From a virus, in IMG/VR virus record IMGVR_UViG_3300027801_001331, positions 1 to 34,332 of that record: a stretch of 34,332 bases of DNA. One strand, written 5' to 3'. Below are positions 653-34,332 of this stretch, piece after piece (within the stretch, counting starts at the first letter, position 1; each line of letters opens with the position of its first letter). Made by a program: the position numbers and the translations under genes. Below the pieces are notes generated by a model. That model saw nothing but the letters and a program-made list of their open reading frames with translations, was not told where the DNA came from and ran no database searches.

Positions 653-2248
653 ATGCCTAAAGGAACAGTAAACACCGAGCTGGTTAAACCAGCATATCAA
701 AAACTACAGTATGACCAAGAGATGCTCAGAGAGTTTCAATTGTGTTGTGACCCGGTTGACGGGGCATTATACTTCATGGAAAAATTTGTTAAGATTCAGC
801 ATCCTACTAAGGGCGGAATTGACTTTGTTCCGTTTGATTACCAGAAAGATTTAATAGCAAACTACAACAAATTTAGATATAGTATTAACATGCTGGGCAG
901 ACAGATGGGTAAAACTACTGTAGCGGCGGCATACTTATTATGGTTTGCTATGTTTAAGCCAGATAGCACGATACTTGTAGCGGCCCACAAAGCGGCAGGC
1001 TCACAAGAAATTATGCAACGTATTAGATATGCATACGAAGGTATTCCAGATCATATTAGAGCCGGAGTTTCAGAATATAACAAGACTAGTTTAACATTTG
1101 ACAATGGATCACGTATAGTAAGTAGTACAACTACCGAGAATACTGGTCGTGGTATGTCGTTAACACTAGTTTACTTAGATGAGTTTGCATTTGTTCCACC
1201 TAGAATAGCCGCAGAATTTTGGACAGCATTGTCTCCCACATTAAGTACGGGCGGTAAGTGTATTATGACCTCAACACCTAACAGTGATGAAGACACTTTC
1301 GCTAGTATTTGGAATCAAGCAACTAAAACTGTCGACGAATACGGTAATCCAAGTGTCACCGGGGTTAACGGCTTTAAAGGTTACATGGCAAAGTGGGATC
1401 AACATCCAGATAGAACGGCAGAGTGGGCAGATGAAGAACGCAGTAGAATTGGTGAAGAGAGATTTAGACGAGAACATGAATGTGAATTTATTATTTACAA
1501 TGAAACACTCATTGACCCTTTAAAACTTGCCACTATGCATGCCACAGACGCCCTGTACAAGATGGGACAAGTACGTTGGTATAAGAGGCCCAGTGCAGAT
1601 AAGATGTATGTAGTGAGTTTAGACCCAAGTGCAGGTACCGGAGGCGACAATGCCGCACTACAAGTAATAGAACTACCTAGCATGAATCAAGTTGCAGAAT
1701 GGTGTCATAACAAAACTCCTATTGAGGGGCAAGTTAGGACTATGATGGAAATTCTAGAAGAAATACAAAACTATGGTGCTAAAGAAATTTACTGGTCTGT
1801 TGAAAACAATAGTATTGGTGAAGCGGCACTAGTTGTAATTAGAGATACCGGTGAAGAAGCTTTCCCTGGAACGTTCTTACATGATCCTGTTAAAGTACAA
1901 GGGCGTAAAGGACGTAAAGGATTCCACACTAGCAGTAAAACAAAAATTGAAGGCTGTATCCAAATTAAACGATACATAGAACAAGATAAGTTAGGTATAT
2001 GTAGTAAAGCATTAATTGGAGAGCTAAAAACATTTGTAGCAAGAGGCAATAGCTTTGCTGGACAACCAGGTGAGAGTGATGATTTGGTTATGGCTATGGT
2101 TGTCGCTTGTAGAATGGTTTCATATATTGCTACATTTGAAGATGATGTTTTCACTGTAGTAAATTCTACAATAGGAATAGAAAAATCAGATAGAGATTCC
2201 GGCCCATATGATGAATATGATGAGCCTATGCCAATTGGATTCTTGTAA
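653..2248 (+). CDS. Terminase large subunit (gp17-like DNA packaging motor/nuclease)
   Basis: ATPase and headful nuclease that pumps DNA into the prohead at the portal. 531 residues, somewhat shorter than T4 gp17. The N-terminal ATPase domain has a Walker A at 82-89 (GRQMGKTT), Walker B with catalytic Glu at 171-178 (TLVYLDEF) and a coupling motif TSTPN at 206-210. The C-terminal RNase H-like nuclease has Asp324 (SLDPS), Glu384 (WSVEN) and Asp476/477 (ESDD), matching the T4 acidic triad. The start at 653 has no clear Shine-Dalgarno but sits right behind a late-type promoter. Its stop overlaps the next start (TAATG), so the sulfotransferase is translationally coupled. The large subunit assignment is secure; no small subunit is recognised here. 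Confidence 0.97.
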   Translation: MPKGTVNTELVKPAYQKLQYDQEMLREFQLCCDPVDGALYFMEKFVKIQHPTKGGIDFVPFDYQKDLIANYNKFRYSINMLGRQMGKTTVAAAYLLWFAMFKPDSTILVAAHKAAGSQEIMQRIRYAYEGIPDHIRAGVSEYNKTSLTFDNGSRIVSSTTTENTGRGMSLTLVYLDEFAFVPPRIAAEFWTALSPTLSTGGKCIMTSTPNSDEDTFASIWNQATKTVDEYGNPSVTGVNGFKGYMAKWDQHPDRTAEWADEERSRIGEERFRREHECEFIIYNETLIDPLKLATMHATDALYKMGQVRWYKRPSADKMYVVSLDPSAGTGGDNAALQVIELPSMNQVAEWCHNKTPIEGQVRTMMEILEEIQNYGAKEIYWSVENNSIGEAALVVIRDTGEEAFPGTFLHDPVKVQGRKGRKGFHTSSKTKIEGCIQIKRYIEQDKLGICSKALIGELKTFVARGNSFAGQPGESDDLVMAMVVACRMVSYIATFEDDVFTVVNSTIGIEKSDRDSGPYDEYDEPMPIGFL

Positions 2249-10080: not shown

Positions 10081-11745
10081 ATGAACAAGATGTTTACTTT
10101 TGCCGCCATAATGCTATTTGCATTCCAGGCCCAGGCAGAGAATATAGAAGAAGTCGTAGTATATGCCCAAGAGGTTAAAACTACAAAAGCAAGTCCATTA
10201 ACAAGTACAACTTTATTTGAGGCAATAATGCCTGAGAAGACTTGGATGGCAGGTGGTTACGGAGCAAGTGCAATGTTCAGAGAACGTGGTGCTCAATCTG
10301 TGCATACTACAGTATATAAAAATGGCGTTCCAGCAAACAACCCGGGCAGTGGTTGGTACGATTTTGGACACGACATTACTAGTGGCGAAACAGTAAAAGT
10401 TATTAGTGGTGCAAACGGAGTTATGTATGGTTCAGGCAGTATAGCTGGAACAGTACTAATTCAAGACACTATTGATACTAGTGTAACTGCAAGACTCGGT
10501 TCAGACCGTCAGCAGTATATTAGTGTTGCCCCTACAAGCTGGTTCCAGTATTCAGACTTTAGCATAGAGCAACAAGCAAGGAATGATAACACTGAAACAG
10601 ACAAGTACAAAAACACGAGTGCTAAAATTATAGCAGATGCAGGAGACTTTAAGTTTATAGTTAATGCAGTAGATTATGCTTACGATTATGACAACTGTTA
10701 TACACCGGCGTTCTCTCAATCAAACGATTGTTTACAAGACGGTCAAAAAGTTACGGTTAGTGTGAGGAACGAATACTTTACACTAGGAAGAACAGAAGAG
10801 AAAGCAGAATATTTTACTGAAGGTGTGAGTACATATCAAAACGAAAGCAGTAGAGATTATTTCAGAATAGGCGACACTACAAATTTGTCGACACTACTTG
10901 AAGTAACATATGGTGTAGATGGTAGCAAAGAACAACACAATGAACATAGCGATGATAACTATGGCGTGTTTGTGAGTATTGATGCACAGTTTATTCTAGA
11001 CTACAACTTTGGAATTAGATATGGCAACGATGACCAGAATGCATTACGTTTTGGAATAGCTAAAGACCAATTCTATCTTAACGTAGGTACTAGTTTTAGA
11101 AAGGCTAACTTGTACGAGCTTTACGGTGACAGTTATGTAGATGCTAATGAAAGTTTAATGCCAGAAGAAGGAACAGGCTATGAGATTGGTTTTGGTGCTT
11201 TAAGTTTATTTAGATATGACTTTGAAGAATCAATTGAGTATACTCCTGGCTATAGTACTATAATGCCTATTGCAAATGCGACTGATGTAGTTGACGATGT
11301 TATAGAAATGGAACCGACTAGTAGTACTAGTATATGGACTAATGCAAAGTATTACAATGCAGGCAGTTACTCTACACAGGGTGTTAGATTCTCTAATAAC
11401 TTTGGCCCAGTAAGTGTTATGATAAAATATAATGATTCGGACAAGCCACGTGTGGCACAGTATGTCACAGTTATAACATATAAAAAGATGTGGAAAGAAG
11501 TAGCATACAAAGTAAGGTATGTAGGATCGTTTGACAGGACACCTGGTATGTATGATATACTTCCAGCTGGACAAGAATATTTAGACGACCTTAAGAAGCT
11601 AAACTTTTATGCAGTAAAAAAACTTCCTAATAACACCACAGTTTCTTTCACAGCATTAAACTTAACAAACGAACAAGCAGAGGTTCTTCCTTATTATAAT
11701 AATAAAGGCAGAGAATTTAACTTGACAATTCAGTACAACTGGTAG
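10081..11745 (+). CDS. Phage-encoded TonB-dependent outer-membrane receptor
   Basis: 554 residues. Residues 1-19 are a Sec signal peptide (hydrophobic FAAIMLFAF, cleavage AQA|E). A TonB-box-like segment follows (EEVVVYA, 23-29). The plug domain (about 35-135) has the family landmarks in order: FRERG (66-70), KNGVP (80-84), VKVISG (105-110) and YGSGSIAG (116-123). The rest is rich in alternating aromatic/polar beta strands, and the final residue is Trp after FNLTIQYN, the usual signal for barrel insertion by BAM. At 554 aa it is shorter than most such receptors (600-900). Such proteins take up iron-siderophores, cobalamin or sugars; the substrate is not readable. It has its own promoter and strong ribosome site, so it is expressed separately. 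A nutrient-uptake gene, a decoy for other phages, or a receptor-altering protein are all possible. Confidence 0.85.
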   Translation: MNKMFTFAAIMLFAFQAQAENIEEVVVYAQEVKTTKASPLTSTTLFEAIMPEKTWMAGGYGASAMFRERGAQSVHTTVYKNGVPANNPGSGWYDFGHDITSGETVKVISGANGVMYGSGSIAGTVLIQDTIDTSVTARLGSDRQQYISVAPTSWFQYSDFSIEQQARNDNTETDKYKNTSAKIIADAGDFKFIVNAVDYAYDYDNCYTPAFSQSNDCLQDGQKVTVSVRNEYFTLGRTEEKAEYFTEGVSTYQNESSRDYFRIGDTTNLSTLLEVTYGVDGSKEQHNEHSDDNYGVFVSIDAQFILDYNFGIRYGNDDQNALRFGIAKDQFYLNVGTSFRKANLYELYGDSYVDANESLMPEEGTGYEIGFGALSLFRYDFEESIEYTPGYSTIMPIANATDVVDDVIEMEPTSSTSIWTNAKYYNAGSYSTQGVRFSNNFGPVSVMIKYNDSDKPRVAQYVTVITYKKMWKEVAYKVRYVGSFDRTPGMYDILPAGQEYLDDLKKLNFYAVKKLPNNTTVSFTALNLTNEQAEVLPYYNNKGREFNLTIQYNW

Positions 11746-22036: not shown

Positions 22037-22755
22037 ATAATTTGCTTGTGAATGGATGTAGTTTTACAGCAGGCTCTGGTAACACCGGAGGAGACGAGCA
22101 TATATCTAGGATAGTGTGGTCAAATCATTTAGAAGACAAATTCGATACTGTAGTTAATCTTGCAAACGGCGGCAAAGGTAATGACAGAATAGTACGAACT
22201 ACATTAGACTATTGTAACAATAATGATATGACAGACTATGTTGCAATTATACAATGGTCGTCACCGTTTAGAACAGAATACTGGAACCCTGAAGATAATG
22301 AGTGGATAAATGTAGTTGTAAACAACGGTATTCAAGGAAACTGGACACTAGATATTTCGAGTAACCCAAACACAGCAAGAAAGCAATTGCAAACACTTTC
22401 ATACGACAACGAAATGAAGTGGTTGAATTCATTTAATGATTACGATATAGCATATTATAATAATGTGTTAGTGTTACAAAACTTTTTTGAAGATAAGCAA
22501 ATACCTTATATGTTTACTAGCATGTCTAACTTAGAACATCCGTTTATGGAAAGAAATATATATGATACCCTGCCTTCAACACCCGAAATAAATTTAAAAA
22601 AATTGATAGATAAGAGTAAATGGGCAGAAGTATCGTTATCAGAATATGCTGACAACAACCCTATTAGCCAAGAAGATCAGCATCCAAACCTAAAAGGTAA
22701 TAAATTAATAGCACAGGCTTTATATAAGGAGCTCATGGAAAAATATGGAAGATAA
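22033..22755 (+). CDS. SGNH/GDSL hydrolase-like protein (paralog 3)
   Basis: 240 residues; the start overlaps the stop of paralog 2 (ATGA at 22033). Blocks: VNGCSFTAGSG (6-16), NLANGGKGNDRIVRTT (about 46-61), VAIIQWSSPFRTEYW, and DQHPNLKGNKL near 222. It aligns along its length with 21269-22036 and keeps the same catalytic-type Ser, Gly, Asn, Asp and His positions, so both copies may be active. The two differ mainly in the middle, suggesting different substrates or partners. It overlaps the gp41 start by 11 bp, tying both SGNH genes into the primase-helicase operon, which is unusual for a surface-modifying enzyme. Confidence 0.75.
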   Translation: MNNLLVNGCSFTAGSGNTGGDEHISRIVWSNHLEDKFDTVVNLANGGKGNDRIVRTTLDYCNNNDMTDYVAIIQWSSPFRTEYWNPEDNEWINVVVNNGIQGNWTLDISSNPNTARKQLQTLSYDNEMKWLNSFNDYDIAYYNNVLVLQNFFEDKQIPYMFTSMSNLEHPFMERNIYDTLPSTPEINLKKLIDKSKWAEVSLSEYADNNPISQEDQHPNLKGNKLIAQALYKELMEKYGR

Positions 22756-24124
22756 TAACTACACACCCGAAATACAAGAACTATTTTTAAGGTTTATTGT
22801 TAGTGACCCCGAATTATTTGTAAGGGTAAACACTATTGTACGCCCTTATATGTTTGATAAGAAGTTTCAAAAGGCAATAACATTTGTCCAAGAGCATACA
22901 ACTGAATATAATGCAATACCTACTATTGACCAAATAGAAGCGACAACTGGTTTATTACTAGAGCGTGTCGAAGGCATTAGTGATAACCATACAGACTGGT
23001 TTCTTGATAGTTTAGAAAGATTTTGTAGACACAAAGCACTAGAAAAAGCAATCTTGGATAGCACGGACTTATTAGAAACAGGTGATTATGGTGCAGTAGA
23101 GAATAAAATTAAAGAAGCAACACAGGTTAGTCTTGTAAAAGACTTAGGGCTCGAATATTTTGAAAATCCTAAAGAACGATTAGAATGGATTAGAGCACAA
23201 AGTGGCGCAACAAGTAGTGGCTGGAAGATGTTTGACCAAAAGTTATATGGTGGCATGAACAGAGGCGAGATAACAATCTTTGCTGGAGGCTCTGGTGCAG
23301 GTAAAAGTTTGTTCTTGCAGAACTTAGGTGTTAACTGGGCATTAGCAGGACTTAATGTTGTATACATTAGTTTAGAGCTTAGTGAACAACTTATTAGTAT
23401 GCGTTTAGATGCAATGGTCAGTGAACATAGTACTAGAGACATTATGCGTAATATAGATGATGTTGATTTAAAAGTAAGAATGAAAGGTAAAAGTGCAGGC
23501 AAGTTCCGTATTAAACAAATGTCCAGTGGTATTAATGCAAACGACATTAGAGCATACGTTAGAGAGTATGAAATTAATCATGATGTTAAAGTAGACTGTT
23601 TACTTGTAGATTATTTAGACTTGATGAGTCCTATTAGTACAAAAATTAGTGCTAACGACCAGTTTATTAAAGACAAATATGTATCTGAAGAATTGCGTAA
23701 CATTGCAATGGAAAGAAATATACTATTTGCAACAGCATCTCAGTTAAACAGAGGAGCAGTAGAAGAAATTGAATTTGACCACAGTCATATTGCTGGTGGT
23801 ATTAGTAAAATCCAAACAGCAGATAATGTTGTAGGTATATTTACTAGTAATGCTATGCGAGAACGTGGTAGATATCAAATACAGTTTATGAAAACACGTT
23901 CTAGTGCAGGAGTAGGCAGTAAAGTAGATTTAAAGTTTAATCCAGACACTTTGAGAGTTACAGATTTAGATGAAGATGACGATGATGCACTAACAGTAAC
24001 CACAAATAGCTTAGTTAATCAGCTAAAAAGAACTAATACTATTAAAACAGACGAGACAGAAGCATCCAGTACGGTTAACGCGGCATTAAACATTAGAGAG
24101 TTCATGAAGAAAAATGATGTCTAA
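22745..24124 (+). CDS. Replicative DNA helicase (gp41/DnaB-like)
   Basis: Hexameric 5'-3' helicase that unwinds DNA ahead of the fork and recruits primase. 459 residues (T4 gp41 475). The N-terminal helical domain (about 1-125) is followed by the RecA-type ATPase: Walker A GGSGAGKS (181-188), the catalytic Glu in SLELSE (209-214), Walker B LLVDYLDL (286-293) and an arginine-rich finger region (MRERGRYQIQF, MKTRSS) near 375-395. The C-terminal tail has an acidic stretch (DEDDDD). The start lies within the end of the preceding SGNH gene. The stop is followed by a late-type promoter, marking the border to the virion block. Confidence 0.93.
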   Translation: MEDNNYTPEIQELFLRFIVSDPELFVRVNTIVRPYMFDKKFQKAITFVQEHTTEYNAIPTIDQIEATTGLLLERVEGISDNHTDWFLDSLERFCRHKALEKAILDSTDLLETGDYGAVENKIKEATQVSLVKDLGLEYFENPKERLEWIRAQSGATSSGWKMFDQKLYGGMNRGEITIFAGGSGAGKSLFLQNLGVNWALAGLNVVYISLELSEQLISMRLDAMVSEHSTRDIMRNIDDVDLKVRMKGKSAGKFRIKQMSSGINANDIRAYVREYEINHDVKVDCLLVDYLDLMSPISTKISANDQFIKDKYVSEELRNIAMERNILFATASQLNRGAVEEIEFDHSHIAGGISKIQTADNVVGIFTSNAMRERGRYQIQFMKTRSSAGVGSKVDLKFNPDTLRVTDLDEDDDDALTVTTNSLVNQLKRTNTIKTDETEASSTVNAALNIREFMKKNDV

Positions 24125-25799: not shown

Positions 25800-27077
25800 A
25801 TGAAATTTAACGAGATATCTAAGCCTCTTGTTACACAACTAATTACTGAAAGTATGCTACTAGAAGGCAAGGAAGGAAAGAATACCCACTTAGAGCATTT
25901 AGAAGATAATATTTTTAATAAAGGTTATCCCGGAGCCAAAGAAGCAGTAGATTATTTGTATAGTTTACATGCTATGCTTGATGGCAAATCACAACAAGCG
26001 GTAAGTATGACAACTAAATGGGACGGTGCTCCAGCCATTATTGCTGGTAAAGATCCAGCAACTGGTAAGTTTTTTGTAGGCACTAAAGGCGTATTTGCAA
26101 AGATTCCTAAAATGAATTTTACCACCAACGATATCAAGTTAAACCATCCTGGACAAGACGACTTACAAAATAAATTACAATTAGCATTAGTTAAATTAAG
26201 TAAACTGACTTGGAATACAGTTGCACAAGGAGATTTTCTTTTTGCAAAAGATACATTAAGCGAAAAAGAAATTGACGGCGAAAGTTATTTAATTTTTAAA
26301 CCCAACACATTAGTATATGCTGTACCGGCTCAGAGCGAGTTGTCTATGAAAATATTACAGAGTGATATAGGCATTGTTTGGCATACAGAATATGTAGGCG
26401 GCCCAACACTAGCAGACACTCAAGCAAAGTTTGGATTTGATAGTAGTGTATTAGGACAAGCACCAGGTGTTTGGCACAGAGATGCAATTATTAAAGACCT
26501 TAGTGGCACAGTTACATTTACTGCTGGTGAAAGTGCAGACATTATGTCAGCTATTGCTACAGCAGACCAGTACTTAAAAACTGTAGACCAAGACACATTT
26601 GCTTGGTTAGGACAAGGCACAGACTTAGTAGGCAAAGAGTTCCTACAGCAATTAAAAGCACATGCAAACATGCAAGTAAGACAAGGACATTTTGATGAGC
26701 CTACTAAATTTGCACAAGGGTTTGTGCAAAAGTATATAGATTACATGACAAAAGAAATAGCCAAAGTTAAAACACAAAAAAGTATTGATGCTAAAACAGA
26801 AAAAATGGTAGCAGGTGTTAAATTTATTAGAGAACACTTACAAAGTATTGTATCAGTGTATGACTTATATTTAAAACTTATCGAAGCAAAAATTAAAATA
26901 GTTAAGAAGCTAGAACAAATCCGTGTAATGAATACATTTGTGCCAACAGAAGATGGGTATGAAGTAACAGGCGAAGAAGGCTTTGTTGCAGTTGACAGAA
27001 TGGGTAATGCACTTAAACTAGTAGATAGATTAGAGTTTAGTAGACTTAACTTTGGATCAGGGAAGCCGGCAGGATAA
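25800..27077 (+). CDS. Conserved late protein with ligase/nucleotidyltransferase-like KWDG motif
   Basis: 425 residues. The N-terminus MKFNEIS with a prohead-protease-type site LITE|S at 14-18 looks like a capsid-targeting sequence; LLE|G at 20-23 is a second candidate. Then comes HLEHLEDNIFNKG and a striking TTKWDGAPAI at 71-80, the KxDG signature of ATP-dependent ligases and capping enzymes. FFVGTKGVF (91-99), QGDFLFAKD (143-151) and YLIFKPNTLVYAVP (163-176) follow, which could be the later nucleotide-binding motifs. I recall cyanophage homologs with the same KWDGAPAI core and N-termini of the MKTF type. The C-terminal half is helical and Lys-rich. Ligase activity is inference; other roles inside the head are possible. 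Confidence 0.75.
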   Translation: MKFNEISKPLVTQLITESMLLEGKEGKNTHLEHLEDNIFNKGYPGAKEAVDYLYSLHAMLDGKSQQAVSMTTKWDGAPAIIAGKDPATGKFFVGTKGVFAKIPKMNFTTNDIKLNHPGQDDLQNKLQLALVKLSKLTWNTVAQGDFLFAKDTLSEKEIDGESYLIFKPNTLVYAVPAQSELSMKILQSDIGIVWHTEYVGGPTLADTQAKFGFDSSVLGQAPGVWHRDAIIKDLSGTVTFTAGESADIMSAIATADQYLKTVDQDTFAWLGQGTDLVGKEFLQQLKAHANMQVRQGHFDEPTKFAQGFVQKYIDYMTKEIAKVKTQKSIDAKTEKMVAGVKFIREHLQSIVSVYDLYLKLIEAKIKIVKKLEQIRVMNTFVPTEDGYEVTGEEGFVAVDRMGNALKLVDRLEFSRLNFGSGKPAG

Positions 27078-29907: not shown

Positions 29908-30162
29908 ATGGCTAAGAAACTAGACCCAAATGAATTACCAGAAATACAAGTATATGCTGATAAAGAAAACTTAGAAGCTCATATTATTGCAGATATGCTT
30001 AGAATAGAAAGTATTACTACAGAACTCAGAGAGTTTAAAGTAGATACTAAAGAAAGATTAAACAAAATTGAAAATTGGGTACTTGCTATTGTTGGTACCA
30101 CATTTACAACACTAGTCACTATTGTTATTGCAATAGGCGTCACACTAGCGGGTGGCCAATGA
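29908..30162 (+). CDS. Small membrane protein, XhlA/holin-like
   Basis: 84 residues. Residues 1-55 are charged and likely coiled coil (LEAHIIADMLRIESITTEL, KERLNKIENW). One hydrophobic helix follows at about 57-80 (VLAIVGTTFTTLVTIVIAIG) with a tiny Gly-rich tail. A coiled coil followed by one C-terminal transmembrane helix of this size is the layout of XhlA-type haemolysin/holin accessories, and it is expressed late. It could instead be a membrane anchor for a virion protein. No endolysin is seen nearby, so the lysis role is uncertain. It starts 1 bp after the preceding stop; its stop overlaps the next ATG (ATGA). Confidence 0.65.
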   Translation: MAKKLDPNELPEIQVYADKENLEAHIIADMLRIESITTELREFKVDTKERLNKIENWVLAIVGTTFTTLVTIVIAIGVTLAGGQ

Positions 30163-30455
30163 GAATAGAAGAAATTACAGAAGAAACAATTATCGAAGCC
30201 AGAATGGTTTGGCGCAAGATGGGTAATAAGGTTAAACGTGCTGTAAGATGTACTAGTGGCAGACGCAAAGGTAGAGTGGTATCTAATGCGGCTCAATGTC
30301 ATAAGCCAGTAGATATTAAAAAACGTATGGTATTAAGACGAACTAAAGCCAAGATGGGTGCTAGGATGTCTAGAAAATCACAAAGGTCAAAAAGAATGAA
30401 TCCAGCTAGTAGAAGGTTGAAAACATTAAATAAATCAAGTAATAGAAGAAGGTAA
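30159..30455 (+). CDS. Highly basic internal-head-type protein with capsid-targeting-like N-terminus
   Basis: 98 residues from ATG 30159, overlapping the previous stop as ATGA. The N-terminus MRIEEITEETIIE|A fits the shared tag and contains a prohead-protease-type site (IIE|A, 11-14). The mature part is extremely basic: KVKRAVRCTSGRRKGRVVS (29-47), then KKRMVLRRTKAKMGARMSRK and RRR at the end. Such charge implies DNA binding. I recall similar RKGRVVSNPAQC-type proteins in marine T4-like phages. An internal head protein packaged with and bound to the genome is the best reading, comparable in logic to T4 IP proteins; a DNA-condensing protein is an alternative. Confidence 0.75.
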   Translation: MRIEEITEETIIEARMVWRKMGNKVKRAVRCTSGRRKGRVVSNAAQCHKPVDIKKRMVLRRTKAKMGARMSRKSQRSKRMNPASRRLKTLNKSSNRRR

Positions 30456-30456
30456 T

Positions 30457-33400
30457 ATGAAGTTTACTGATGTAAGAACTTTAAAGCATGTCCTTAAGGA
30501 ATACGGATTACAGTCTGGTGCACCAACTCCTGTTGGGCAACAAACTACAGGCGCAGTTGCTAAGGCAACAGCGGCACCTACTAAAGCACCTAAACAAGAT
30601 TTAGGTAGCCCAACGGTAACACAAGGGTTAGATATTCCTAAAATAGGCGAGCCTGAAGCAGATATAAATACCCCACAACCAACCTTAATGAAAGCAAAAG
30701 ATTTTGAAGACGGCGCTGAATATTTAGATGACAAAGGCGAAGTTGCAGGCAAAGTTGTAAGTAAAGTCGGTAAAGGACCAGCACTTAAAAAACTAGTTGT
30801 ACAAGATCCTAAAGGCGAGTACACACTAATAGATCCTGATGAGGAATTAACAGTAGCACCAATCACAGAAGCCAAAGGTGGCAAGTACAGTAAAAAAGTC
30901 CATAAAAATGCTTTACGAAAAACATCTAAAAGCAAAAACAGTATCTCATCAGTTAAACAAAAAATTAAAAAACTTGCACGAAAAGTACAGATGCAAGAGC
31001 AAGGCACTGAGCAGTTATTTGAACTAAACTTTAACACTAAAGAAATAATTGAATCAGCATTAGATTCCCCTATTAAATGCGGATTCGAAGCTGAAACAGT
31101 ATGGGAAAGCTACAGCAACAATGATAATAATTATGGCGAAGAAGTCGATGACATGTCTTGGAGCGATATCGAAGACAGAATTTTTGATGAGTATGGCAGA
31201 AGTTACTTAGACGACATCAACGAAGCATACCGTAATTGGATCTTAGAAGACAAAATATACGAGTACGAAGGCGACCTTGTACAAGAGTTAGTTAACGAAC
31301 GTAAAGAAGATGAAGCATACATAGAAGAATTTATTGATTCGAGTGGTGGCCCAACTGAATATGCTGTTGAGAGACGAAAAGAAGATTTAAAAGATAGCGA
31401 CCCAGCAGAATACGAATCCAGGATAGAAGATGGGTGGGAATACATTAACTGGCTACGAGAAATTGTCGAAGAAGAAATGGAAGACGAATTCATTGAATGG
31501 TTAGAACAAGACATCCGAGATAACGGCGAAATATTTGATGCCGCTATGGAAGCCGCAGAGGAAGACCTGTCTATACCAGATTGGGTAAGTGATACCTATG
31601 GTAGCATGAGTGAGATGTTAGGCGAGTACGAAGTTTACCTCGATAATAATACCGAAGGCGGCTTAGACGGCGTTGGAGACGAACTACGAAATTGGGCAGA
31701 GAATAACAGTCAGTCAAGTAATATCGAAGTAGGCGAATATCATTCCGGTGGTATTAACAACGACTATTGGCGAGTAGAAGACGACAGCAGTATCGATGGC
31801 GATGGCGCAGGTGCAGAGATTATATCACCAGTGTATCAGACACCGAGAATAATGCTTGAAGAAATAAAATCATTGTTTGAGTCTTTAGCAACAAATGATG
31901 TAGAAACAAATAGGTCAACTGGCTTACATGTTACTATGAGCTTGGATCCTACACAAACAGATATGACAGCATCAGCTGAAGTTAACAAAGTTAAACTTGC
32001 TGTGCTATTAGGTGACAAATATTTAGCAAGTACTTTCGGTAGGGAAAACAATAGTTATGCTAAATCACAATATGAACGATTAGAGAAGAAAGCGGTTGAA
32101 CTTAAAGCAGATCCTACCAGTACAAAAACAATAGAAGCAATTGAACAAATATTAGAATCTGCAATAAGCAGTGACAAGTTTAGTTCAATTAATTTTAAAA
32201 ATCAAAGTGATAACCAATCAGGCTACAATCTTATAGAATTTAGAATTGCAGGTGGACATGATTACCACACGGATATGCCAAAAATTGTTAAGTCAGTTGT
32301 GCGTTATGCAGAAACACTTAGAGCAGGTTATACAGATGAACATCGTGCAGATTATGTAAAAGCATTGTTCAAGTTAATCAACAACGTTGGGAAAATTAGT
32401 ACAGACCTCGAAGATAGAGTTAAGGGTAGATATGAAGAATTAGATCACCCTGTTGTTGATGTGTTAAAAGGTTTCTTTGCCAAAGATCATTACATGGAAA
32501 GTGTAGGAACATTAGCTCGAGCATTTAAGAACTTAAACGACTACAAAGAAAATATGGAACCAGATGCTGATGCAAAATGGGAACAGCGAGTAGCTCAATG
32601 GGAAAAACAGACTGGCGAGACACACGAACGATTAAAAGAAGCACCTACTCCACGTGAAGCCGCAGTAGGCATAATGAAGCCTCAAAAAAGCCCACCGAGT
32701 GTAAATGCACCTAAATATTTAAGCGAAGCCCAAAACATGTTTACAGCCGCAGTTGCACAGGCAGGCTATGACTTAAACCAAAATCTCAATAGAGAACAAG
32801 TTAATGCCAAAGCAATTGGTGTGCTAAGAAAAACACTACCAGAATTTGAATTAACATACGAAACACTTTCTGATAAAGTAAATAGAAATTATAGTCAAAT
32901 TGAATTTGGACGTGGCAGTGTAGATGAAGAAACAAAATTTAGCAGAGTTAAAAATGGTGTAGATAGATTATTCAAGAAAGATATAATCGCGGCACCAGAG
33001 TTTTTATCAGAATTACAAGTTGAAAAAATTATATCAGGTATCTGGAATGCAATAAACACCGAAGAAGGCAACTCTTCAAAGGATAAAGCATTGGTAGCCG
33101 CTGTTGTAAACGCTTCAAATAACACAGTAGACAGTGATGTCGAACGTGTACTTGGTTACACAGACACTAATAAACCTCAAGACTATATTAATTTAAAACG
33201 CCTTATTTCAGGTGGTAGAGGTGACTGGTTTACAGTTGGTAACACTATACAAGGCAACGACTACGATACATTAATAAAAGAATTAAAAAAATATCCTGCT
33301 TGGGAACATCCAGTTCCAAGAGAGCATGATGCAAGAACCACAGGATCGGACAACACTTACGCACATGCATCTGCCCGCAAAATGTTGGACAAATTACAAA

Positions 33401-34332
33401 GTCGTATGAATGCATTAAGTAACCTACGCAACACTGATCCAGAATTATATATTAACAGTTTGAAACAAATGTTCAACAGTTCAAAACAGTTATTGAAGCA
33501 GGTTAAAAAAACAACAGCCGGTGATACATACACCTTCTCAATGACTGATCGAGAGCATGATAGAATTGTTGAGATTATATCAAGTATAGAAGCACAAAAC
33601 TATGTGCCTGATCCGTTTAGCGACCAACCAGCAATAGCAGTTTTCTCTCATATTAAGTCTTGGTTAGAAGACCAGTTAACTACACATAGTTATGGTAAGG
33701 AACTCGATCCCGGCGATACAAAAGCAAAATTTAAGGCAAGAACAAACGCAGTTGCAAAATGGTTAAGTGCGTTAGATACTATATCACAAAAATTAGGATT
33801 TGACAGCCAGAAAGGTGCTATAGATAATAAACTGAACCAAGTGCAAAAAGGCAAGGACTTCCAGATAGCCACACATGGTGAGTACAAAGCATCAATCACA
33901 GTGTTCAACTATGGCGGTGATGTTTGGGCCAGAAACAGTCTTAATGCTATAATAAACAATACCGATAATATGGACGACTGGAGTGTACAATATTTACAAG
34001 ATTTTTATAGCTCATTCAATTTTAACAGCAGTATGTTTAGAAGTGGCGACAGTAGATTATTAATTATACCACATGCACATTACTTTATAGCCCTTGAAGC
34101 CAGTGAGCATAAACCAGATGGGTCGTTCAGAGATAGCAAAGCAGAGGACATACTTAGAAAGTTTAGAAATGTTTATGGAATCTCATTCCAAGATTTAGCC
34201 AGCGAGTACACAAAGGTCCATATTAGGAAGCTGAAGCAGATGGGTGTACAAGTTATAGAGAAAGGCGATGGCAGAGAAGGATTACCACCTTACAACTTCG
34301 CACCATTGTTACCCAGAGCAGAAATTAACGCT
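30457..34332 (+). CDS. Very large late protein with amidoligase-like domain (3' partial)
   Basis: ATG 30457 has a good ribosome site (AGAAGG) and follows the basic protein by 1 bp. I read every codon to the window end: 1292 codons with no stop, so the gene continues to the right. The N-terminus MKFTDVRTLKHVLKE|Y fits the shared tag with a possible cleavage site (LKE|Y, 13-16). Residues about 75-205 form a basic region. A putative amidoligase (ATP-dependent carboxylate-amine ligase of glutamine-synthetase fold) begins near 207: CGFEAETVW (208-216), AEIISPVYQ (453-461), STGLHVTMS (487-495) and LIEFRIAGG (592-600). Between the first two blocks lies a very acidic 230-residue insertion. The C-terminal part is helical and unassigned. 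Family members are thought to make amide or peptide bonds; the substrate is unknown. Confidence 0.85.
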   Translation, partial: MKFTDVRTLKHVLKEYGLQSGAPTPVGQQTTGAVAKATAAPTKAPKQDLGSPTVTQGLDIPKIGEPEADINTPQPTLMKAKDFEDGAEYLDDKGEVAGKVVSKVGKGPALKKLVVQDPKGEYTLIDPDEELTVAPITEAKGGKYSKKVHKNALRKTSKSKNSISSVKQKIKKLARKVQMQEQGTEQLFELNFNTKEIIESALDSPIKCGFEAETVWESYSNNDNNYGEEVDDMSWSDIEDRIFDEYGRSYLDDINEAYRNWILEDKIYEYEGDLVQELVNERKEDEAYIEEFIDSSGGPTEYAVERRKEDLKDSDPAEYESRIEDGWEYINWLREIVEEEMEDEFIEWLEQDIRDNGEIFDAAMEAAEEDLSIPDWVSDTYGSMSEMLGEYEVYLDNNTEGGLDGVGDELRNWAENNSQSSNIEVGEYHSGGINNDYWRVEDDSSIDGDGAGAEIISPVYQTPRIMLEEIKSLFESLATNDVETNRSTGLHVTMSLDPTQTDMTASAEVNKVKLAVLLGDKYLASTFGRENNSYAKSQYERLEKKAVELKADPTSTKTIEAIEQILESAISSDKFSSINFKNQSDNQSGYNLIEFRIAGGHDYHTDMPKIVKSVVRYAETLRAGYTDEHRADYVKALFKLINNVGKISTDLEDRVKGRYEELDHPVVDVLKGFFAKDHYMESVGTLARAFKNLNDYKENMEPDADAKWEQRVAQWEKQTGETHERLKEAPTPREAAVGIMKPQKSPPSVNAPKYLSEAQNMFTAAVAQAGYDLNQNLNREQVNAKAIGVLRKTLPEFELTYETLSDKVNRNYSQIEFGRGSVDEETKFSRVKNGVDRLFKKDIIAAPEFLSELQVEKIISGIWNAINTEEGNSSKDKALVAAVVNASNNTVDSDVERVLGYTDTNKPQDYINLKRLISGGRGDWFTVGNTIQGNDYDTLIKELKKYPAWEHPVPREHDARTTGSDNTYAHASARKMLDKLQSRMNALSNLRNTDPELYINSLKQMFNSSKQLLKQVKKTTAGDTYTFSMTDREHDRIVEIISSIEAQNYVPDPFSDQPAIAVFSHIKSWLEDQLTTHSYGKELDPGDTKAKFKARTNAVAKWLSALDTISQKLGFDSQKGAIDNKLNQVQKGKDFQIATHGEYKASITVFNYGGDVWARNSLNAIINNTDNMDDWSVQYLQDFYSSFNFNSSMFRSGDSRLLIIPHAHYFIALEASEHKPDGSFRDSKAEDILRKFRNVYGISFQDLASEYTKVHIRKLKQMGVQVIEKGDGREGLPPYNFAPLLPRAEINA

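What the first reader, a model, noticed from the sequence alone, without database searches (positions are those of the whole stretch)
25800..27077. KWDG nucleotidyltransferase-like motif in a probable internal head protein
TTKWDGAPAI fits the lysine-adenylation motif KxDG of DNA/RNA ligases, and downstream blocks GDFLFAKD and IFKPNTLVY fall at plausible distances for motifs III/IV. With a capsid-targeting-type N-terminus it could be a virion-packaged ligase or capping-type enzyme acting on the entering genome. I recall homologs with the same core in cyanophages but no assigned activity.
Basis: partly seen in the sequence, partly recalled or inferred. Interest (0 to 1): 0.5.

Follow-up and report, generated by a model that had tools for sequence, protein, structure and literature searches.

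The report
Capsid-targeted RNA-ligase-like phage protein
This virus gene, shared by most T4-like viruses of ocean cyanobacteria but never given a function, looks like an enzyme that joins broken nucleic acid ends, most likely RNA, and in this virus it appears to be packed inside the particle for delivery into the host.

Summary
ORF 25800-27077 (425 aa) is Pfam DUF6267 / phrog_455, both of unknown function. Two AlphaFold2 models (pLDDT 90) align best with RNA ligases: 48 of 50 and 50 of 50 listed structural alignments are nucleic-acid ligases. Sequence profiles do not find known ligases. There is no OB domain or motif VI, against a capping enzyme or classical DNA ligase. In the window's clade, 36 of 36 distinct N-termini carry an [IL]xE prohead-protease-type site. 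The usual partner gene, a HIGH-type nucleotidyltransferase, carries a T4 IPIII-like capsid tag in S-SM1 and was detected in S-SM1 virions (PMC3037559). Fourteen of 17 DUF6267-bearing phage records lack every Pfam ligase family tested. Best reading: an unrecognised, RNA-ligase-like covalent nucleotidyltransferase, head-packaged in this lineage. Activity, substrate and packaging are inferred, not shown.

The parts
25800..27077 (+). DUF6267 / phrog_455 protein, 425 aa
   Evidence: Pfam PF19782 E 9.8e-101, phrog_455 E 4.9e-94
25800..25865 (+). capsid-targeting-type N-terminus (residues 1-22) with candidate prohead-protease sites after ITE (E17) and LLE (E22)
   Evidence: clade conservation 36 of 36; L/I-X-E specificity of T4 gp21 from passages of PMC9026906
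25887..25907 (+). HLEHLED element (residues 30-36), H30, H33 and E35 invariant in A6
26016..26027 (+). motif I K73-W-D-G
26076..26096 (+). VGTKGVF, K96 invariant; position like motif Ia of RNA ligases
   Evidence: compared with T4 Rnl1/Rnl2
26226..26243 (+). motif III QGDFLF, D145 in a beta strand (Glu in phage S-T4)
26301..26318 (+).
26382..26393 (+). HTEY block, H195/T196/Y198
26523..26921 (+). helical insert between motifs III and IV (residues 242-374); shorter in ~300-aa family members
   Evidence: AF2 secondary structure
26976..26987 (+). true motif IV E393-G-F-V
   Evidence: 267 of 267 rows with a residue
27012..27029 (+). motif V LKLVDR (K406, R410)
   Evidence: K406 265 of 265 rows with a residue
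27036..27053 (+). FSRLNF C-terminal signature; no domain follows
22745..24124 (+). DnaB/gp41-type helicase upstream (a gp41-type helicase also lies upstream in cyanophages)

Best explanation
The protein is a covalent nucleotidyltransferase of the nucleic-acid ligase superfamily, closest in fold to RNA ligases (Naegleria Rnl, T4 Rnl2/Rnl1, REL1, Trl1), in a minimal form: no C-terminal or OB domain, and a helical insert between motifs III and IV. Lys73 attacks ATP to form Lys-AMP, and AMP is passed to a 5'-phosphate end that is then joined to a 3'-OH. RNA ends (for example tRNA cut by host anticodon nucleases) are the most likely substrate. In this phage lineage the protein enters the prohead through its N-terminal targeting peptide, is trimmed by the prohead protease after LITE (or LLE), and is ejected with the DNA so that it can act before phage genes are expressed. 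Shown by computation: conserved active-site motifs, predicted fold, conserved targeting-type N-terminus. Inferred: adenylylation, sealing, RNA as substrate, packaging, timing. My step odds: fold and Lys chemistry 0.85; seals nucleic acid 0.6; RNA rather than DNA 0.65 given sealing; packaged in this lineage 0.65. The confidence below is for a ligase-type enzyme acting on nucleic acid ends, with RNA favoured, not for every step jointly.
For: Motifs I, III, IV and V invariant in order, each at a strand or adjoining loop in the AF2 model. VIA-align of the 425-aa model: ranks 1-12 Naegleria RNA ligase Z 8.1-8.9, then TbREL1, T4 Rnl2, T4 Rnl1; 48 of 50 rows are ligases. The short-form model: 50 of 50 rows ligases, best Z 9.1 over 175 residues; Foldseek lists ligases in 42 of 50 rows. 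The best hhalign segment against T4-type Rnl1 is motif IV-V, P 0.02 and 0.036. T4 Rnl1 EGYVAVMKDGSHFKIK resembles EGFVAVDRMGNALKLV. Targeting N-terminus: 36 of 36 in clade; strict IPIII layout in 27 of 241 family N-termini, and at the first Met of 40 of 1714 neighbour ORFs against 1 of 7633 internal Met; T4 IPII and IPIII serve as positive controls. The neighbour gene T4-GC190 has the tag in S-SM1 and was detected in S-SM1 virions.
Against: No sequence method links it to a known ligase: Pfam, PDB phmmer and profile search, hhalign against Rnl2. Foldseek alone gives no PDB match at E<=0.001 for either model, and VIA Z of 7-9 is close to the range its note calls typical for models without a clear match. 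Most cyanophage homologues examined and the short forms lack the targeting peptide. No virion proteome read here names DUF6267. RNA-repair-type neighbours are absent in all 41 informative loci of the window's own clade.
Confidence: 0.5

Rival explanations
1. It is the phage's replacement DNA ligase: it seals nicks in replicating or entering phage DNA, doing in cyanophages what gp30 does in T4.
For: 14 of 17 DUF6267-bearing records have no match to PF01068, PF01653, PF09414 or PF09511, while T4 has PF01068, PF09414 and PF09511 and no DUF6267. The gene sits beside gp41, uvsX and gp43 in cyanophages.
Against: The closest folds are RNA ligases, DNA ligases come lower. No OB domain or motif VI. The 340-kb contig bearing a close relative (G005), DLP6 and the Vibrio phage carry a DNA ligase as well. 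A packaged replicative ligase would be unexpected.
Confidence: 0.2
2. It makes Lys-AMP or Lys-NMP but is not a polynucleotide ligase: it nucleotidylates a protein, metabolite or RNA 5' end together with the HIGH-type nucleotidyltransferase (an NMNAT-like, possibly NAD-related, pathway).
For: The HIGH-type gene lies close by in 53 of 124 informative loci and is in the same ORF in 4 of 317; a 591-aa S-PM2 protein named for its cytidyltransferase-like domain is the best BFVD match; the phrog_455 profile spans both parts.
Against: The HIGH-type gene is absent from all 41 informative loci of the window's clade. No capping, AMPylation or NAD family matched P0001.
Confidence: 0.17
3. A head or scaffold-associated protein that keeps a degenerate nucleotidyltransferase fold without catalysis.
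For: Conserved targeting-type N-terminus; location among possibly structural or internal head genes.
Against: All catalytic positions are invariant over hundreds of sequences down to about 25% identity, and many homologues have no targeting peptide.
Confidence: 0.07

Closest known systems
RNA ligases of the covalent nucleotidyltransferase superfamily (Naegleria gruberi Rnl, T4 Rnl1 and Rnl2, TbREL1, fungal Trl1)
   Same: Motifs I, III, IV, V in order; predicted nucleotidyltransferase core; no OB domain needed (recalled); similar motif IV-V string to T4 Rnl1
   Different: No detectable sequence-profile membership; no C-terminal domain after motif V; large helical insert between III and IV; HxxHxED element before motif I
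T4 internal head proteins with capsid-targeting sequences (IPI-IPIII, Alt)
   Same: N-terminal peptide with an L/I-x-E site; strict ten-residue IPIII layout in 27 of 241 family N-termini
   Different: The window's own peptide is a longer variant (MKFNEISKPLVTQLITE); packaging not observed; most cyanophage members examined lack it
Pfam DUF6267 / phrog_455 / T4-GC71
   Same: Member by profile; records of Syn1, S-SSM5, S-PM2, P-SSM2, P-HM1 and S-SM1 label it T4-GC71
   Different: The family has no assigned function; this work proposes one

Membership tests
covalent nucleotidyltransferase (ligase/capping) superfamily | motif I KxDG with invariant Lys | tested here: met
covalent nucleotidyltransferase (ligase/capping) superfamily | acidic residue of motif III on a strand | tested here: met
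   D145 276 of 277, E in the other; strand 141-149
covalent nucleotidyltransferase (ligase/capping) superfamily | motif IV EGxV and motif V hKh | tested here: met
   E393/G394 267 of 267, K406 265 of 265
covalent nucleotidyltransferase (ligase/capping) superfamily | nucleotidyltransferase core fold | tested here: met
   predicted models only; Foldseek E above 0.001
covalent nucleotidyltransferase (ligase/capping) superfamily | lysyl-nucleotidylate formation | not testable with these tools
   needs assay
ATP-dependent DNA ligase / mRNA capping enzyme | C-terminal OB domain with motif VI | tested here: not met
   the protein ends 33 residues after the motif IV Glu; no Pfam ligase match
Rnl1 (PF09511) or Rnl2 (PF09414) family | profile match | tested here: not met
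   hhalign (Rnl2; Rnl1, only motif IV-V, P 0.02-0.04)
Rnl1 or Rnl2 family | family-specific C-terminal domain after motif V | tested here: not met
   33 residues from motif IV Glu to the end against 131 (T4 Rnl2) and 148 (T4 Rnl1)
T4-type internal head proteins | N-terminal targeting peptide with L/I-x-E site | tested here: met
   36 of 36 in the window's clade
T4-type internal head proteins | strict ten-residue IPIII layout in the window protein itself | tested here: not met
   the strict pattern fits 27 of 241 relatives, not the window's MKFNEISKPLVTQLITES
T4-type internal head proteins | presence in the virion | not testable with these tools
   needs proteomics
DUF6267 | profile match above cut-off | tested here: met
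   338 bits, cut-off 27

The most novel reading that the evidence does not exclude
Phages of this group carry a ready-made nucleic-acid repair kit inside the capsid. DUF6267 is its ligase, the HIGH-type nucleotidyltransferase is its usual partner and, in some lineages, a P-loop kinase, a HAD phosphatase and a Pol-beta nucleotidyltransferase, several with capsid-targeting N-termini, complete it. It is injected with the genome to undo host defence cuts (tRNA, or DNA) before any phage gene is expressed.
Probability: 0.22. Interest if true: 0.85.

Novelty: new variant of a known kind. Interest (0 to 1): 0.62.

Why it matters
By organism name, DUF6267 matches 371 'Synechococcus' and 61 'Cyanophage' phage records against 377 and 61 for the T4-type terminase, so it is close to a core gene of T4-like cyanophages, among the commonest marine viruses, and has no function. 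A ligase assignment would explain how phages with no recognised ligase join nucleic acid ends, or would reveal pre-packaged repair of host-inflicted cuts. It also gives a cheap test: one purified protein, labelled ATP and one Lys mutant.

Tried and rejected
KxDG as evidence alone: rejected, chance-level. PDB sequence searches: phmmer 0 hits; profile 16 hits up to E 10, none a ligase. hhalign to T4-type Rnl2: nothing. Foldseek in PDB with the 425-aa model: best row unrelated, E 0.054; ligases in 5 of 50 rows. Plasmids: no match. Bacterial/archaeal contigs: 39 loci, mostly marine MAG contigs, read as phage contigs from their titles only, not checked. PADLOC: no match for P0001. tRNA genes in the window: none.

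Rnl2 protein against 15 viral records: none, uninformative without a positive control, so repeated with Pfam families and T4 as control. My loose targeting regexp also fires on T4 gp30 ligase and misses Alt, gp67, gp68, gp22, gp23 and IPI, so I rely on the strict layout and the clade count. The K73 counts lean towards K because the scans used a KxDG pattern as one of two; and one search are the correctives. For one search I used 17 named phage homologues, 8 fetched as diverse members and 9 as distant or informative ones, out of 468-469 records. S-PM2 (L360) is split in its record and is not counted for motifs IV-V.

S-CREM2 virion protein ORF160 (894 bp) has the right size for a short DUF6267, but I did not map it. 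Virion tables in supplements were not readable. Papers that use the names DUF6267, PF19782, phrog_455, T4-GC71 or IPR046234: none; this covers only the held open-access library.

Papers seen: PMC3037559 (passages, section 26), PMC10665884 (passages, section 18), PMC9602691, PMC9964418, PMC9503650, PMC9026906 (passages), PMC7824862 (passages, section 21); others only as search listings.

Full report
Observation. KxDG occurs five times in the window's 10,697 residues and in 20% of shuffles of this protein, so the motif alone means little.

Family. The protein is Pfam DUF6267 (338 bits) and phrog_455. tblastn finds it in 468 of 50,697 phage records, nearly all cyanophages, plus Methylophilales, Pelagibacter, Stenotrophomonas, Vibrio and Pseudoalteromonas phages. 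Two length classes exist: about 400 aa, and about 300 aa with a shorter helical part.

Active site. In seven diverse members (27-39% identity to the window protein) the invariant residues include K73 D75 G76, K96, D145, H195, E393 G394, K406 and R410. Over 277 aligned rows: K73/D75/G76 276 of 276 with a residue; D145 276 with one Glu; E393/G394 267 of 267; K406 265 of 265. The peptide patterns behind the later scans favour conserved motifs, so I checked separately. Forty-five rows that have a residue there but do not match the KxDG pattern still have K, D and G (one further row is a gap). So do 17 of 17 named phage homologues fetched through tblastn, one with Glu in place of D145. E393-G394 and K406 fit motifs IV and V: T4 Rnl1 reads EGYVAVMKDGSHFKIK, this protein EGFVAVDRMGNALKLV.

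Fold. AF2 on 129 aligned family members gave pLDDT 90.3, pTM 0.87; a ~300-aa member with 46 sequences gave 90.7, 0.86. VIA-align lists ligases in 48 of 50 rows for the first (best Naegleria RNA ligase, Z 8.9, 182 residues, rmsd 3.7) and 50 of 50 for the second (Z 9.1, 175 residues, rmsd 3.5). Foldseek on the short model lists ligases in 42 of 50 rows, but none below E 0.001; on the long model 5 of 50, best row unrelated. In BFVD the top row is a 591-aa S-PM2 protein named cytidyltransferase-like (TMq 0.85), and an Agrobacterium phage RNA ligase appears at E 5e-4. Sequence-level searches for ligases failed; against T4-type Rnl1 the best segment is exactly motif IV-V, P 0.02 and 0.036. So the superfamily assignment rests on motif order, invariance and predicted fold together, none of which is enough alone.

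What is missing. The protein ends 33 residues after the motif IV Glu; T4 Rnl2, Rnl1 and gp30 have 131, 148 and 144. It has no OB domain, hence no motif VI, which speaks against a capping enzyme or a classical DNA ligase. It is not a member of the Rnl1 or Rnl2 families by profile.

Capsid targeting. In passages of PMC9026906: T4 gp21 cleaves after L/I-X-E, the first ten residues of IPIII suffice for targeting, and many internal proteins are ejected into the host. T4 IPII and IPIII start MKTYQEFIAEA. All 36 distinct N-termini of the window's clade have an [IL]xE site in residues 9-26, against 14% in shuffles. Across the family 27 of 241 distinct N-termini have the strict IPIII layout M..[FY]..[FY][LI].E and 109 have no or a very short extension; among distinct + strand neighbour ORFs, 40 of 1714 have it at the first Met, against 1 of 7633 internal Met. 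The adjacent HIGH-type gene T4-GC190 starts MKKFSAFLNEA in S-SM1, and GC190 was detected in S-SM1 virions (PMC3037559 section 26); a cytidylyltransferase is listed in S-CREM2 virions too. The authors of that and a similar study warn that highly expressed proteins may simply remain with CsCl-purified virions. The S-SM1 DUF6267 itself has no such peptide. Packaging of DUF6267 is therefore likely in lineages with the peptide and unproven everywhere.

Context. In cyanophages the gene follows gp43, uvsX, gp41 and mazG and directly precedes or overlaps the HIGH-type gene (mazG and the HIGH-type gene also). Of 124 loci with at least 2.5 kb on both sides (of 317), 53 have the HIGH-type gene, 15 a P-loop kinase of AAA_33 type, 15 a Pol-beta nucleotidyltransferase, 5 a HAD protein and 7 an adenylate-kinase-like protein; 23 have at least one of the last four, all long forms; 4 of 317 have the HIGH-type part in the same ORF. 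None of these occurs in the 41 informative loci of the window's own clade, so this context supports the family-level idea, not the window's case.

Ligase inventory. T4 has DNA ligase, Rnl2 and Rnl1 by Pfam and no DUF6267. Of 17 records with DUF6267, PF01068 is found in 3 (DLP6, Vibrio phage 2.275, and the 340-kb contig that bears a 72% relative of the window protein), PF09414 and PF09511 in 1 (the Vibrio phage), PF01653 in 0. Fourteen of 17 therefore have no recognised ligase; three of the 17 are IMG/VR contigs whose completeness is not given. This keeps a DNA-ligase role open as the main rival.

Verdict. A new, structurally reduced variant of the RNA-ligase-like covalent nucleotidyltransferases, probably head-packaged in this lineage. 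Catalysis, substrate and packaging need the bench.

Noticed in passing
L099:6210-8558, L112:2874-5429 and relatives: Large ORFs near DUF6267 fuse a Pol-beta-type nucleotidyltransferase to the HIGH-type nucleotidyltransferase (Pfam PF01909 and PF01467), some with capsid-targeting-like N-termini.
   Followed up: partly
L092:3818-4537, L099:5543-6220, L139:6529-7212: P-loop kinases (AAA_33/polynucleotide-kinase-like) with capsid-targeting-like N-termini next to DUF6267.
   Followed up: partly
window 30159-30455: Small, extremely basic ORF starting MRIEEITEETIIEARMVW, conserved in the clade (19 ORFs in cluster 1); candidate packaged DNA-binding protein.
   Followed up: no
window 30457-34332: ORF of at least 1292 aa open at the window end, capsid-targeting-like start (MKFTDVRTLKHVLKE), no Pfam or PHROG match.
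   Followed up: no
window 10081-11745: 554-aa ORF with a signal-peptide-like start that reads by eye like an outer-membrane barrel receptor, odd inside a phage replication/packaging region; untested.
   Followed up: no
window 653-2248: Large terminase is closest to PA5oct-group Pseudomonas phages (57% identity), so the window is a divergent T4-type lineage.
   Followed up: partly
L360:7866-9645 (S-PM2, AJ630128): DUF6267 and its neighbour are split in this record, and the PF19782 match continues from S-PM2p138 into S-PM2p139, while BFVD holds a 591-aa S-PM2 protein covering DUF6267: likely one fused gene.
   Followed up: partly
L348: A DUF6267 homologue in a 188-kb contig of the Nonlabens xiamenensis isolate assembly, possibly a co-sequenced phage.
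   Followed up: no
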